Shown here: positions 11,045 to 28,827 of the stretch, piece after piece | Numbering within the stretch: the stretch's first letter is position 1 | How the letters are laid out: each line of letters starts with the position of its first letter | Assembly (NCBI GenBank): GCA_029941785.1 | Contig: JAPYTK010000005.1 | Span: 1-64,000, forward strand | DNA: 64,000 nucleotides | Origin: Polyangiaceae bacterium | GTDB lineage: Bacteria; Myxococcota_A; Polyangia; Polyangiales; Polyangiaceae | Reading direction: 5' to 3' | The notes under the pieces: model-generated | What the model saw: only the letters and a program-made list of their open reading frames with translations | What the model was told of the DNA's origin: nothing | The model's database searches: none | Position numbers and translations under genes: made by a program

Positions 11045-12142
11045 ATGGATTTCTCCTTCGATGCCGCCCAATCGGCGCTCCACGACGCGATGCGTACCCT
11101 CGGCTCGCGAGCCCTGGCGGCGCCCCCCGAAGAGCGTCTCGACGTGCTCGCTGCCGGTGGCGCGCTCGGGTTGTCGATTGCGGCAGCGCACGGGGGAGGC
11201 GGGCATGATCTCCTGACGACGGCTCACGCCTACGAGGGACTCGGCTCCTCCCTCGACGACGGGGGCGTCTTGCTGGCTGCCGGGGCGCATCTTTTCGGCG
11301 TCGCGATGACCATCCAAAAGGTGGGCACCGATCGGCAGCGGGCCACCTGGTTGCCCGAGCTTGCGACCGGGCGCTGCCTCGGGACCGTGGCAGCGACGGA
11401 GAGCGGTGCAGGCTCGGACGTGGGGGCGGTCCAGTCTTCGGTCGAGTCAACCGACGACGGAGTGCGGCTCAGCGGTGAGAAAGCCTACGTCACCTCGGCG
11501 CACCGCGCGGGCTTGTTCTTGTTCGTCGGCCGCCACGCCGGTGGTCGCGGCTTGACCGTGGCTCTCGTGCCGAGCGAGCACGCGACCGCCGGGGAACCAT
11601 GGCCTACGGCCGGATTACGCGGAGCTGGACTCGCGCCGGTCGTGTTCGATGCACCCGCGATGTCTGCCGAAAACGTGTTGGGCAAGCCGGGCGCGGGCAT
11701 GGCCGTGTTTCAAACGGCGATGACCTACGAGCGGGCTCTCGTCCTCGCCTTTCGTTTGGGTTCGATGCAGCGTGGACTGGATGAGGCTGTGGCTCACGTT
11801 CGTCGGCGCAAGAGCGGTGGTGTTGCGATGGCTCAGCATCAAGCGGTGCAGCACCGCATTGCGAGAATGAAACGCCGACTCGAGACGGCCCGCTTGCTGG
11901 TCTACCGGGCAGCCTGGCAACTCGACCAGGGTGAGCGAGCCACCGGCGAAGCGGCGCTCGCCAAATGGCATCTCGCCGAGGCCGCGATGCTTTCGGCTCT
12001 CGATGCGCTGCAGCTGCGTGGGGCCTCGGGCTATCTGGATTCGAGCGGGATCCCCGCGGCGATCGACGACGCTATCGGCGGGACGATCCACTCGGGGACC
12101 GAAGACGTTCTCGCCTCGATCGTCGCCCGTACGCTCGCCTAG
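11045..12142 (+). CDS. Acyl-CoA dehydrogenase-family flavoprotein, atypical active site
   Basis: A 365-residue protein with the three-part acyl-CoA dehydrogenase fold. FAD-binding segments are seen in TVAATESGAGSDVGAV and GEKAYVTSAHRAG, and the C-terminal helical domain carries the HQAVQHRIARM stretch. In short- and medium-chain enzymes the base is Glu in a YEGT motif; the matching place here reads TIHSGTEDVLASIVAR, with Ser in place of Glu. Either another residue acts as base, as in isovaleryl-CoA dehydrogenase, or the protein handles a carrier-bound or non-standard substrate. No ETF or enoyl-CoA genes are adjacent. Its end overlaps the convergent membrane gene by four bases. Confidence 0.78.
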   Translation: MDFSFDAAQSALHDAMRTLGSRALAAPPEERLDVLAAGGALGLSIAAAHGGGGHDLLTTAHAYEGLGSSLDDGGVLLAAGAHLFGVAMTIQKVGTDRQRATWLPELATGRCLGTVAATESGAGSDVGAVQSSVESTDDGVRLSGEKAYVTSAHRAGLFLFVGRHAGGRGLTVALVPSEHATAGEPWPTAGLRGAGLAPVVFDAPAMSAENVLGKPGAGMAVFQTAMTYERALVLAFRLGSMQRGLDEAVAHVRRRKSGGVAMAQHQAVQHRIARMKRRLETARLLVYRAAWQLDQGERATGEAALAKWHLAEAAMLSALDALQLRGASGYLDSSGIPAAIDDAIGGTIHSGTEDVLASIVARTLA

Positions 12143-13515
12143 CGATCCATGTTCCGGAAGGCACGTTCGGGACTCACCCTCTTGGCGGGCCGCTTTTTCT
12201 CGGGCGTGGCGCTGGCCGCGGGTTTGCCCTTGGGTCGGTTCTTCTCGGCCTTCTTCGCGCTCCCGAGATCGCGGAAGCGCTGTTGCACGGTCGCGTCGGG
12301 GTTGGTGAAGCTGAAGAGTTTCTTCGCTTCGAAGCCGTAGGATTTGGTCCGTCCAAACCGCGGGTTCATGTCGTGAAGCCAGTACACTTCGCCTTTGACG
12401 ATGGCGTCATTCGGATTCCCGGTTCGCTTGGGCAAGCGGTAGATGTACTGCTTCATCGGCTTCCGGAAGGACGTGTTCGCGGGCAGGTGCATGCGGTTGT
12501 AATAGTCGCTCCAGATTTGGCTGTAGCCGTAGCTTCGGGCGTGGAGCAAATCGTAGTCGGGCTTGCGCAGCTTCTCGCCGGGCAGGGCGTCGGGTGACAG
12601 GGGATCGACGTGCCGACCGTCCACGGTCACCGCGTCGACGAGCAGGGTGCCGTCATCCATCACCGGGTTGGGCGAGAACATGAACCAGCCTTGCAGGTAA
12701 CGCATCTTGTGGGCAAGGAGGCGCACCTCCGTGGGGTGCGGCAAGCGCAGACCGCGGTAGGCCCACAGCTCCGACAGGGCTTGGTTGATCGCGCCCATCC
12801 AGAAGGCGACGATGATGATCTCGCGCAGGCCGACGAAGAGGCGCTGTCGCTTGACGCGCGGGGCCGACGGGGTGGTCAGCACCATGAGGACCAATGGCTT
12901 GAAGAATTGGTATCCGAACACGAGGAGCAACACGAGCCCTAGGTAGGTGATTCCGTCCCCGCGACTCAGCCAAACGGTGACGTCTTTTCCACCGCCCCAT
13001 GGGATCAACCCCAGGTTCAGATCGACTTTCATCTCGAGCTTCTTGGCCGTCCATTTGACCATGGGCGCGCCGTACACGTAGAGGAAGGTGCCGAAGAAGA
13101 AGCCCACGAAGTCGACGATCATGCGGCTGTCACGCCAGCGGCGGTGGCGGAAGTAGTCGTGCAGCCAGTCGCGCATGTAATACTCATCCATCGGCTCGGC
13201 GCCTTGGGCGGTCATGTCGCGGGCTGCGGTGCTTGTCGCCGCGGCCGTCGCCGTCGTCGCGGTCGTCTTCATTCCAAAGAAGCGCGCCGAGGGGGCCGCG
13301 AGCCCTCCACCGATCGTCGCGAGCAGCTGACCGATACCAGGAATGCGCAGAGGCACCGCGTACAGCGGGCCGATCGGCAGGGCGGAGAGGATGTCGATGG
13401 CGGCGGCGCGACCGTGCACCCGGCTGGTGTCGCCAGGCCGAACCGTCTCCAGTCCGCGGGCTGCCGGATCTTCGACGAAGTGGAGCAGTTCGAATTGGTT
13501 CCATCGCTTGAGCAC
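12139..13515 (-). CDS. Membrane protein with truncated DCC (DUF393)-like N-terminus
   Basis: The reading frame begins right after an in-frame TAG that ends the upstream HTTM gene. From GTG 13515 it is 458 residues. Residues 1-85 (LKRWNQFELLHFV, HGRAAAIDILSALP, PLRIPGIGQLLA) match the body of a DCC thiol-disulfide-oxidoreductase-like domain but miss its first strand and DxxCxxC motif. Then come an Ala/Thr linker, about three membrane helices, and a long soluble C-terminus with a Lys/Arg/Pro-rich tail. Several upstream codons without a start are domain-like (GALWICRV). It may be a nonsense-split half of a larger HTTM-DCC protein. It follows the HTTM gene by 21 bases and must be co-transcribed with it. 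Confidence 0.7.
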   Translation of the reverse strand: MLKRWNQFELLHFVEDPAARGLETVRPGDTSRVHGRAAAIDILSALPIGPLYAVPLRIPGIGQLLATIGGGLAAPSARFFGMKTTATTATAAATSTAARDMTAQGAEPMDEYYMRDWLHDYFRHRRWRDSRMIVDFVGFFFGTFLYVYGAPMVKWTAKKLEMKVDLNLGLIPWGGGKDVTVWLSRGDGITYLGLVLLLVFGYQFFKPLVLMVLTTPSAPRVKRQRLFVGLREIIIVAFWMGAINQALSELWAYRGLRLPHPTEVRLLAHKMRYLQGWFMFSPNPVMDDGTLLVDAVTVDGRHVDPLSPDALPGEKLRKPDYDLLHARSYGYSQIWSDYYNRMHLPANTSFRKPMKQYIYRLPKRTGNPNDAIVKGEVYWLHDMNPRFGRTKSYGFEAKKLFSFTNPDATVQQRFRDLGSAKKAEKNRPKGKPAASATPEKKRPAKRVSPERAFRNMDR

Positions 13516-13536
13516 GCGACAAATCCACAGCGCGCC

Positions 13537-14595
13537 CTACGAGCCGGGGTCGAAGAACACCTTACGCGCCCGATGCTCACGCTTCATTGTGCGGATGGCG
13601 ACCTCCCAGTCTTCGCGGCTGAGCAGCAGGACCGAGAACACGCACAGCGCCCACGCGAAGGGTCCGAGCACGAAGGTCGAACCAAAGCCGAGGTGCAGCA
13701 GGGTAATGAACACGATGGCCGTGCGCTTCGCCCAAACCCGTGCGATAGGCGACATCAGTGCGATCGGCATGCCGATCTCCATGCCGATCGTCGCCTTGGT
13801 CATGATGATGAGCATCCACGTCGGGAGGTGCTCGCGCACGGCGGCGACCAAGGGGTTGACCATCCGATCGACCCACAGCACGTAGTGCACCGCGGTGCCG
13901 TTGTGCCAGGCCGGGCCCGTCTTGTGCCGGTAGTTGTAACCGTAGATCGCGCACAGCTGCAGCAGCAGCACCAAGCCCAGGATGGTCACGTGCGGGTCGA
14001 GCCGCCAGGCCTCCTCCGGCTCATGGCGATCGTTGAGATCATCGGCGCCCCCTTCGCGTCGGCGACGCCAGGAGCTGAGCATCGCGTCCACGCTGAAGCG
14101 ATCGCCGAGGGGCAGCAGCGCGGTCCAAAGCAACAGCAGGTTGTGCACCACGTAGCCGCCGTTTTCGATCAGCAGCACGCGGCCGTTCATGCTCGCGACG
14201 AAGATCGCCGCCAGCACTTGCGCGATGCGCGTCTTGTAGCCGACGAGCACGCACAGGTAGATCGCGAGCCCGACCGCCCACAGCACCCACAGCTCTTGGC
14301 GGGTGGAGAAGGCGTTGAAGATCGACCAGCCCGATGACTGCGGTCGCCACAGGTTGACGTGGGTCGGCAGGACGCCCTCGTTGGAGAACATCCTCCACCA
14401 GTCGCCGGTGCGGCGGAACAGATCGAAGATGAGGAAGAATCCGAGCAGGATCCGGGTCAGCCCGAGGGTGCGGCGATCGAAGGTGAAGTAGTTGTCGCGC
14501 AGATCTTCCCACCAGGTCGTCTCGACCCGTTCGGTGGGCTCTGTGGTTTCCCCGTCTCGGGGAGCCTCCGGCGTCTTCTCTGTTTCGTCGACCAT
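13537..14595 (-). CDS. HTTM-domain membrane protein (vitamin K gamma-carboxylase-like)
   Basis: A 352-residue integral membrane protein of the HTTM family, the transmembrane module shared with vitamin K-dependent gamma-carboxylases. It starts with an acidic, charged leader, then FDRRTLGLTRILLGFFLIFDLF and further helices including ENGGYVVHNLLLLWTALLPLGDRFSVDA, a highly typical HTTM block, and LQLCAIYGYNYRHKTGPAWHNGTAVHYVL. The soluble carboxylase lumenal domain is absent. The last residues, VFFDPGS, look like the opening strand of a DCC domain that continues in frame beyond the TAG. Bacterial HTTM functions are poorly known. ATG 14595 is clear. Confidence 0.85.
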   Translation of the reverse strand: MVDETEKTPEAPRDGETTEPTERVETTWWEDLRDNYFTFDRRTLGLTRILLGFFLIFDLFRRTGDWWRMFSNEGVLPTHVNLWRPQSSGWSIFNAFSTRQELWVLWAVGLAIYLCVLVGYKTRIAQVLAAIFVASMNGRVLLIENGGYVVHNLLLLWTALLPLGDRFSVDAMLSSWRRRREGGADDLNDRHEPEEAWRLDPHVTILGLVLLLQLCAIYGYNYRHKTGPAWHNGTAVHYVLWVDRMVNPLVAAVREHLPTWMLIIMTKATIGMEIGMPIALMSPIARVWAKRTAIVFITLLHLGFGSTFVLGPFAWALCVFSVLLLSREDWEVAIRTMKREHRARKVFFDPGS

Positions 14596-26226: not shown

Positions 26227-28827
26227 ATGGCAAGCGAACGGGACGGGGTGATTCGGCTAGACAAGTTCGACGGTGACGGGAAGCAGCTCGTGGCCGGTGC
26301 GCAACAACTCGCCGACGAGAAGCAACATGCGGAGATCTTACCCATCCATGTTCTCACCCGTGGTCTCGAGCAGAATGCGGGTATGGCGGCTGTCTTCAAG
26401 CATGCCGGTGCCGAACCCAGCCAAGTTGCGGAATTGTGCGACAACGTGCTCAAGCGTTTGCCCAAGGCGAGCGGGATGGCCTACGTCAGTCCGCAACTGC
26501 TCGACCTGATCGAGCGCGCCGAGCGTGATGCCAAGCGCGACCGCGCCGATATCGTCACGGTTGGAAACATCTTGAACGCCCTGGCTCAGAGCCGGCGCGG
26601 AGGTCCGGTCTCTGACGTGTTGTCCCACTTCGGAATCGCGCCCGGAGGATTTCGCGATCACCTCAAGGCTCTGGACAGCGCGCCGAAGGGGCTGAGTTCT
26701 GCGGGAGGCGGCGTTCATGGGGCTTTCACGCGCAATTTGGTCGCGGAGGCCCGGGCCGACCAATTCGATCCGGTGATCGGTCGTGATCTCGAGATCCGCA
26801 GGCTGATGCAGATCCTCGCGCGTCGCTTCAAGAACCACCCGCTGGTCGTCGGCGAGCCTGGCGTTGGCAAGACGTCCATCCTCCGCGGCTTTGCGGTGAG
26901 GTTGGCGAAAGGAGACGTCCCGTCCAACTTGGCGGGAGCGCGCTTGCTCGAGCTCAACACTGGCGCGCTCGTCGCCGGGGCGAAACTGCGCGGAGAGATC
27001 GAACTGCGGCTCAAGAGCGTCATCGACAAGCTGGAGAGCATGACAGATGCCCCGAACATCCTCGTCGTCGAGGAGCTACACTCCTTGTTCGGACGTGGCG
27101 TCGCCGGATCGGGGATCGGCGAACTTCTCAAGCCATTGCTCACACGAAGCGAGATTCGGTTCATCGCGACGACAACCCCGGAAGGGATTCAGAAGATCAC
27201 CGAGCGGGATGCGGAAGTCTTGCGTCGCTTTGCCGGCTTCGAGGTCGAGGCGCCGACCGCCGAGCAGACTCAGGAAATTCTGCGCGGTATAGCTTGTCGT
27301 TACGAACGCCATCATCGCGTCGGGATCACCGAGGGCGCGGTCAGAGCGGCGGTGTCCCTCGGCAAGCGTTACCTGGGTGATCGACAGCTACCGGAGTCGG
27401 CGGTGGACCTGATCGACGAGACGGCGGCACGCAAGCGAGTGGCGACCGATGGCATGCCGCCGGACGTCGACGCGGCTTTGCGGCGTCTCGAATCGCTGGA
27501 GGCCCAGATCGCGGGGATCGCCGGCGATGATGACAAACTCGGTGTGCAGGTGCGTGCGGAACTCGAGGCCGAGGCGGAGCAGCTGCGGCCCCGCGTGACG
27601 GAGATGCGCTCGAAGTTCGAATCACGTCGGGGGGTCGTGGCGGCTGTGGCGACTCTTCGCAAGGAGCTGGCTGCGGCAGAAAAAGCGAAGGCTGAGGCAC
27701 AAGCTCTAAAGAACTTTGCCGAAATTGGGGAACTCGAGCACGTGACCATTCCGGATCTGGTCAAGCGCCTCCAAGCCGCTGAGCGAGCAGCCTCGAGCGC
27801 TGGCGTAGAAGAGACCGCCGACGTGCTCAGGGACGAAGACGTCGCGCAGACCGTCAATGATTGGACCGGCATTCCCGTCGCGAAGATGCTCGAAGGCGAA
27901 GCGGAGAAACTGCTCAAGATGGAGGAGCGCCTCGGTCAAAGCGTCATCGGTCAAGACGAGGCGGTCGCTGCCATTGCCCGCGCGGTGCGCCGTAGCCGCG
28001 TCGGATTGCGCGATCCGGGCAAGCCGATTGGTTCGTTCTTGTTTCTTGGACCGAGCGGCGTCGGCAAGACCTACCTGGCCAAGTGTTTGGCGGGTTTCCT
28101 GTTTGACGATGAGCAGGCCATCACGCGTTTTGACATGAGCGAGTTCATGGAGAAGCACATGGCTCAGCGCCTCATCGGTGCCCCTCCTGGTTATGCCGAC
28201 AGCGAGGCAGGAGGCCATCTCACGGAGGCCGCGCGTCGTCGTCCCTACAGCGTGCTGCTCTTCGACGAGGTCGAAAAGGCTCACGCGGATGTGTTCAATT
28301 TGCTCTTGCAGGTGCTCGACGATGGTCGCTTGACCGATGGCCGCGGCAGGTTGGCGAACTTCTCGAACACCGTGGTGATCATGACCTCCAACATCGGCTC
28401 GGGGCGGATCCTCGACGCGGATCCAAAGCTCTTCGAGTCCGAGGATGGTCGCGAGGCGATCAGTGACGTGTTGCTGAACGAACTCGGCGATTTCTTTCGG
28501 CCCGAATTTCTCAACCGTATCGACGACAGCGTCGTGTTCAAGCCCCTGACCAAGGAGGACCTGCTGGGGATCGTCGGTCTGCAACTGCGCAAGCTCGGCA
28601 AGATGTTGGCGGAGCGGGAGATGACGCTCGACGTGACGGAAGCTGCGCGAAAACGAATCGTCGACTTGGGATACGAGCCGGCGCTCGGGGCGCGCCCCGT
28701 GAGCCGGGTCATTCTCCGCGAGATCCAAAACCCGCTCGCGCAGTCGATTCTCGAGGGCGGCGATCTCTCATCGGGAACGATCAAGATCGATCTTTCTGGC
28801 GAGGAATTTACCTTCGAGAAAGCTTGA
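26227..28827 (+). CDS. Divergent ClpB-like double AAA+ chaperone
   Basis: An 866-residue Hsp100-family protein: N-domain, NBD1, a coiled-coil middle domain (about 470-560) and NBD2. NBD1 Walker A is GEPGVGKT (209), NBD2 Walker A GPSGVGKT (608), NBD2 Walker B LLFDEVEKAH. Odd features: the NBD1 Walker B reads LVVEELH, Glu282 replacing Asp; NBD1 pore loop is GAKLRG (Leu254 for the usual Tyr); NBD2 pore reads GYAD (655) rather than GYVG. ClpP-binding IGF/L loop is not evident, so a disaggregase, not a protease partner, is favoured. These changes suggest altered substrate grip. Divergent from a glutaredoxin gene. Confidence 0.85.
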   Translation: MASERDGVIRLDKFDGDGKQLVAGAQQLADEKQHAEILPIHVLTRGLEQNAGMAAVFKHAGAEPSQVAELCDNVLKRLPKASGMAYVSPQLLDLIERAERDAKRDRADIVTVGNILNALAQSRRGGPVSDVLSHFGIAPGGFRDHLKALDSAPKGLSSAGGGVHGAFTRNLVAEARADQFDPVIGRDLEIRRLMQILARRFKNHPLVVGEPGVGKTSILRGFAVRLAKGDVPSNLAGARLLELNTGALVAGAKLRGEIELRLKSVIDKLESMTDAPNILVVEELHSLFGRGVAGSGIGELLKPLLTRSEIRFIATTTPEGIQKITERDAEVLRRFAGFEVEAPTAEQTQEILRGIACRYERHHRVGITEGAVRAAVSLGKRYLGDRQLPESAVDLIDETAARKRVATDGMPPDVDAALRRLESLEAQIAGIAGDDDKLGVQVRAELEAEAEQLRPRVTEMRSKFESRRGVVAAVATLRKELAAAEKAKAEAQALKNFAEIGELEHVTIPDLVKRLQAAERAASSAGVEETADVLRDEDVAQTVNDWTGIPVAKMLEGEAEKLLKMEERLGQSVIGQDEAVAAIARAVRRSRVGLRDPGKPIGSFLFLGPSGVGKTYLAKCLAGFLFDDEQAITRFDMSEFMEKHMAQRLIGAPPGYADSEAGGHLTEAARRRPYSVLLFDEVEKAHADVFNLLLQVLDDGRLTDGRGRLANFSNTVVIMTSNIGSGRILDADPKLFESEDGREAISDVLLNELGDFFRPEFLNRIDDSVVFKPLTKEDLLGIVGLQLRKLGKMLAEREMTLDVTEAARKRIVDLGYEPALGARPVSRVILREIQNPLAQSILEGGDLSSGTIKIDLSGEEFTFEKA

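What the first reader, a model, noticed from the sequence alone, without database searches (positions are those of the whole stretch)
13505..13560. In-frame TAG splits an HTTM-DCC membrane protein
The HTTM gene ends VFFDPGS-TAG and the same frame continues GALWICRVLKRW into the next gene, whose first 85 residues look like a DCC domain lacking its opening strand. VFFDPGS is just that opening strand (DCC domains start V/F-F/Y-D-x-x-C). So one domain is divided by a stop. Options are a real nonsense mutation, stop-codon readthrough or suppression, a sequencing error, or a re-initiating gene pair. The cysteines of DxxCxxC appear absent either way, so the domain may be structural.
Basis: partly seen in the sequence, partly recalled or inferred. 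Interest (0 to 1): 0.6.

Follow-up and report, generated by a model that had tools for sequence, protein, structure and literature searches.

The report
Premature stop in gamma-carboxylase-like membrane gene
A gene for a bacterial membrane protein distantly related to vitamin K-dependent carboxylase carries one premature stop signal that all 29 distinct relatives examined lack, so it is most likely an ordinary recent nonsense mutation or an assembly error rather than a special way of reading the genetic code.

Summary
On the minus strand, TAG at 13539-13537 ends a 352-codon HTTM ORF, and the same frame stays open for 465 more codons. Twenty-nine distinct relatives, including the same-genus one and isolate Sorangium genomes, encode the whole thing as one uninterrupted ORF, with Pro, Gly or Ala where the window has TAG. 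Pfam finds DCC1-like domains starting at exactly this strand in paralogues that keep the cysteines. The window's own lineage lost the CxxC before the stop arose. AlphaFold2 puts the TAG at the start of the first DCC helix, right after strand 1.

Recoding is not supported: none of the 40 tRNAs plus tRNA-Sec has a CUA anticodon, there is no PylS, RF1 is intact, no RNA structure follows the stop, and TAG terminates this same gene. In about 88,000 aligned codons sampled from this draft genome, this is the only credible interior stop.

The downstream half keeps 45 of 46 otherwise invariant residues, so the stop is very young or is a consensus error. The truncated product would still contain the HTTM core with the lysine aligned to GGCX Lys218. 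Verdict: an ordinary interrupted gene; raw reads would decide between mutation and error.

The parts
12139..14595 (-). Ancestrally single gene (HTTM, cysteine-less DCC-like domain, membrane insertion, C-terminal domain), interrupted once by TAG; 818 codons counting the TAG position
   Evidence: 29 distinct relatives are single ORFs across it; order HTTM-argB-argC shared with relative G007:C2
13537..14595 (-). 352-aa upstream ORF ending VFFDPGS; HTTM core at residues 28-337 with Lys225 aligned to GGCX Lys218
   Evidence: (PF05090 24.2 bits, cut-off 27.7)
13537..13539 (-). Premature in-frame TAG (codon 353); relatives have Pro, Gly or Ala there
13306..13569 (-). Cysteine-less DCC-like domain, roughly residues 343-430: strand 344-348 upstream of the stop, helix 353-365 and the rest at and after it
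   Evidence: alignment with Cys-bearing paralogues that hit PF04134; AlphaFold2 secondary structure
13513..13515 (-). GTG that an ORF finder uses as start of the downstream ORF; in relatives the aligned position is an ordinary Val, Leu, Ile or Trp codon inside the first DCC helix
12871..13200 (-). Membrane insertion, roughly residues 466-575, present in the window gene and in relatives of genera g1 and g6, absent from the Sorangium-type relatives
   Evidence: alignment; helices
12286..12870 (-). Conserved C-terminal domain (QGWFMFSPNPVMDDGT...), roughly residues 576-770
12139..12141 (-). The gene's normal stop, also TAG, overlapping the TAG stop of the convergent acyl-CoA dehydrogenase-like gene (12140-12142, + strand)

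Best explanation
This is one ancestral HTTM-DCC membrane-protein gene broken by a single premature stop in this draft genome: either a recent nonsense mutation in the sampled population (about 0.5) or a base error in the draft consensus (about 0.3). If it is real, ribosomes end at RF1-read UAG after 352 residues. The cell then makes a carboxylase-like HTTM membrane core without its DCC remnant and C-terminal domain, and the rest is made hardly or not at all. The single-gene ancestry and the absence of known UAG-reading machinery are shown; the youth of the stop and the fate of the product are inferred.
For: All 29 distinct relatives are uninterrupted, including the same-genus copy in G001. The TAG column holds Pro, Gly or Ala in them, so no relative shares the stop. 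No CUA anticodon among 40 tRNAs plus tRNA-Sec(UCA); no PylS above cut-off; RF1 intact at 503.9 bits. Only credible interior stop in about 88,100 aligned codons from 269 matches (checked). The gene's own terminator is TAG. The downstream half keeps 45 of 46 invariant residues and has GC3 0.84 against 0.88 upstream, as expected if the interruption is very recent or not real. Belinky et al. [quoted passage not shown]
Against: Near-perfect conservation downstream is also what a still-translated gene would show. No codon seen in a relative at this position is one substitution from TAG, so a single error or mutation needs an unseen intermediate codon in this lineage. The downstream half has a rather long branch (C/N 2.05 against 1.22 for the whole tree) and one lost invariant Asp (D to N at residue 366), a weak hint of older relaxation.
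Confidence: 0.82

Rival explanations
1. Split but working gene pair: the HTTM part ends at TAG and ribosomes restart at the GTG eight codons on, giving a separate C-terminal protein that pairs with the HTTM part.
For: A GTG lies 7 codons after the stop and the downstream frame is intact and conserved. A relative without any DCC exists (536-aa L012 ORF), so the DCC part can be dispensable.
Against: The split falls between strand 1 and helix 1 of one small domain, so the second product would lack the first strand and the start of the helix. No recognisable Shine-Dalgarno at the right distance (sequence, by eye). The aligned position in relatives is an ordinary Val, Leu, Ile or Trp codon, so the GTG shows no sign of being an acquired start. 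No relative is split.
Confidence: 0.09
2. UAG is read through or suppressed at this site, so some full-length protein is made.
For: Downstream half remains conserved. In-frame stops with purifying selection around them have been reported in bacteria (PMC7918605).
Against: No CUA tRNA, no PylS, RF1 present. Folding after the stop is no stronger than shuffles, z = -0.04. No other credible interior TAG in the sampled genome. The stop is not conserved in any relative. TAG terminates this same gene.
Confidence: 0.07
3. Genome-wide reassignment of TAG to an amino acid.
For: None beyond the single interrupted frame.
Against: One interior TAG in about 88,100 aligned codons; RF1 intact; no cognate tRNA found.
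Confidence: 0.01

Closest known systems
HTTM-DCC proteins of Polyangiaceae/Sorangium (PF05090 + PF04134 architecture)
   Same: Same domain order, 49-56% identity to the closer relatives over the alignment, and order HTTM-argB-argC shared with G007.
   Different: The window copy is the only one with an in-frame stop; its DCC lacks the CxxC, as in its close relatives.
Vitamin K-dependent gamma-carboxylase (GGCX)
   Same: Best fold match (Foldseek E 3.7e-06, probability 1.00) and weak sequence match; invariant Lys225 aligns with GGCX Lys218.
   Different: About 15% identity, whole-model TM-score 0.26-0.27, so only part of the protein is matched; no carboxylase activity tested.
In-frame premature stops in bacterial genes (Belinky et al. 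2021, PMC7918605)
   Same: Single TAG within an otherwise conserved frame.
   Different: Those authors kept stops shared by two or more species; this one is in a single genome.

Membership tests
HTTM (PF05090) | Match to the HTTM profile above the curated cut-off | tested here: inconclusive
   Window 24.2 bits, cut-off 27.7, E 2.9e-05; orthologue L105 passes with 31.8 bits; fold matches GGCX.
DCC1-like oxidoreductase (PF04134) | Profile match including the DxxCxxC motif | tested here: not met
   No hit in the window protein and no Cys at these positions; Cys-bearing paralogues pass with 45.7-60 bits from profile position 1. So a DCC-like remnant, not a DCC oxidoreductase.
GGCX-type carboxylase | Catalytic-base lysine (GGCX Lys218) retained | tested here: met
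   Lys225 invariant in 24 sequences, aligned to K218 of GGCX; the alignment is weak, E 0.011. That Lys218 is the catalytic base is from general knowledge.
GGCX-type carboxylase | Vitamin K-dependent glutamate carboxylation activity | not testable with these tools
   No assay.
Pyrrolysine UAG decoding | PylS and tRNA-Pyl(CUA) | tested here: not met
   PylS best 20.6 bits against cut-off 178; no CUA tRNA.
Selenocysteine at UAG | tRNA-Sec with anticodon CUA | tested here: not met
   tRNA-Sec has anticodon UCA.
Programmed stop-codon readthrough | Stop conserved among relatives | tested here: not met
   0 of 29 distinct relatives has it.
Re-initiating (coupled) gene pair | Relatives show two genes with a complete second start | tested here: not met
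   All relatives are one ORF.
Nonsense-interrupted gene | Intact orthologues, at least one in the same gene order, and one in-frame stop here | tested here: met
Nonsense-interrupted gene | Stop present in raw reads or in a second genome of the species | not testable with these tools
   No reads held; no second genome of the species turned up.

The most novel reading that the evidence does not exclude
The TAG is real and tolerated, and the lineage uses it as a leaky switch or re-initiation point that yields both an HTTM-only carboxylase-like core and a small amount of full-length or separate C-terminal protein.
Probability: 0.06. Interest if true: 0.45.

Novelty: new member of a known kind. Interest (0 to 1): 0.13.

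Why it matters
Mainly for annotation: the two ORFs should be recorded as one interrupted gene, not as an HTTM gene plus a new family. The wider family is more interesting than the stop: GGCX-like membrane proteins of Polyangiaceae with DCC domains, several of which have lost their cysteines.

Tried and rejected
Suppressor tRNA, PylS, UAG-Sec and loss of RF1 were searched in the whole genome and not found. A stimulatory RNA structure after the stop: none. Genome-wide in-frame stops: a first pass listed 168 apparent cases, nearly all from shadow frames; after keeping only the best match per place, the others lay at alignment ends, in poorly aligned stretches or upstream of true starts, e.g. the ClpB-like ORF at 26227. 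Scan of genome contigs with the downstream half found no relative, with the upstream half ten. Accelerated evolution of the C half was considered as a sign of old decay and left as inconclusive. A literature search on nonsense mutations in metagenome-assembled genomes found nothing.

Full report
What was checked. The minus strand reads GAC CCC GGC TCG TAG GGC GCG CTG TGG with the TAG at 13539-13537. It ends a 352-aa ORF (14595-13537), and the same frame is open for 465 further codons to a second TAG at 12141-12139.

One gene, not two. A search of relatives with the joined 818-codon frame found full-length homologues that are each one open frame. Translating 39 loci (29 distinct after removing ten that appear twice) showed that every one crosses the join in a single ORF with at least 150 aa on each side. 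The closest include MAGs of the same family (54-56% identity), the same-genus genome G001 (49%) and several Sorangium cellulosum isolate genomes. At the TAG column relatives have Pro, Gly or Ala, encoded for instance by CCG, GCC, GCG, GGC or GGT. The order HTTM-argB-argC is shared with G007:C2, which supports orthology.

The domain. Pfam does not see a DCC domain in the window protein, nor in the three close orthologues scanned. Paralogues that keep the cysteines (VIYDADCGVC, YYDSSCGVC) match PF04134 with 45.7-60 bits from profile position 1, exactly at the aligned strand. The window lineage and its Sorangium relatives have lost both cysteines (FDPRSPGA and the like), so the cysteine loss predates the stop. 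AlphaFold2 on the joined protein (24-sequence alignment, mean pLDDT 77.3, pTM 0.78) gives strand 344-348 and helix 353-365, with the TAG at the first helical residue.

The rest of the protein. The upstream part is a GGCX-like HTTM core: GGCX structures are the top fold matches, and invariant Lys225 lines up with GGCX Lys218. That Lys218 is the catalytic base is from general knowledge, not tested here. The truncated 352-aa product would hold this core whole. Carboxylation or any other activity is inference only.

Recoding. The genome has 40 tRNA matches plus one tRNA-Sec; ARAGORN gives no CUA anticodon, and tRNA-Sec reads UGA. PylS is absent and RF1 is intact. RNA folding after the stop is average, z = -0.04. 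The gene's own terminator is TAG. The genome is 98.84% complete, so a missing suppressor gene is unlikely but not excluded.

How unusual is such a stop here? Comparing 1.24 Mb of this genome with 1.2 Mb of relative G007 gave 269 non-overlapping matches, about 88,100 codons. This TAG is the only interior stop with good alignment on both sides. Among the other candidates, those in the ClpB-like match lie upstream of its ATG and those in L135 were judged from the alignment to lie upstream of a gene start; the remainder were dismissed from their poor local alignment without individual follow-up. An isolated event of this kind fits either a spontaneous nonsense mutation or a residual consensus error in a 415-contig draft; the tools here cannot tell which.

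Age of the stop. The downstream half keeps 45 of 46 columns invariant among 26 closer relatives, against 69 of 70 upstream, and its GC3 is 0.84 against 0.88. So it was under full constraint until very recently, or still is. Two weak opposite hints: the only lost invariant residue downstream (D to N at 366) is 13 residues after the stop, and the C-half branch is 2.05 times the N-half branch against 1.22 for the tree, though several intact relatives have ratios of 1.5 or more.

Conclusion. Ordinary interrupted gene: recent nonsense mutation (about 0.5) or consensus error (about 0.3), with a working split pair (0.09) and readthrough (0.07) as minor rivals. The split between mutation and error is a judgement, not a measurement. 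Published work finds in-frame stops in bacterial genes common but short-lived (PMC7918605).

Noticed in passing
L020 (G000:C133:4281-8318), L018, L030, L022: Tandem HTTM-DCC paralogues: one copy keeps the DCC cysteines (e.g. YDDSCGIC), its neighbour has lost both. Repeated Cys-plus and Cys-minus pairing might mean an enzyme and pseudo-enzyme partnership.
   Followed up: partly
window 12871-13200 (-): About 110-residue membrane insertion between DCC remnant and C-terminal domain, found in the window gene and in genera g1 and g6, absent from Sorangium-type orthologues.
   Followed up: partly
L012 (G028:C7), ORF 595-2202: Homologue with the HTTM part joined directly to the C-terminal domain and no DCC at all, a natural case of the DCC being dispensable.
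   Followed up: no
window 12139-12142: Convergent genes share the palindrome CTAG so that both end in overlapping TAG stops.
   Followed up: no
window residue 366, codon at 13498-13500 (-): The otherwise invariant Asp of the LKRxD motif, 13 residues after the stop, is Asn here.
   Followed up: no
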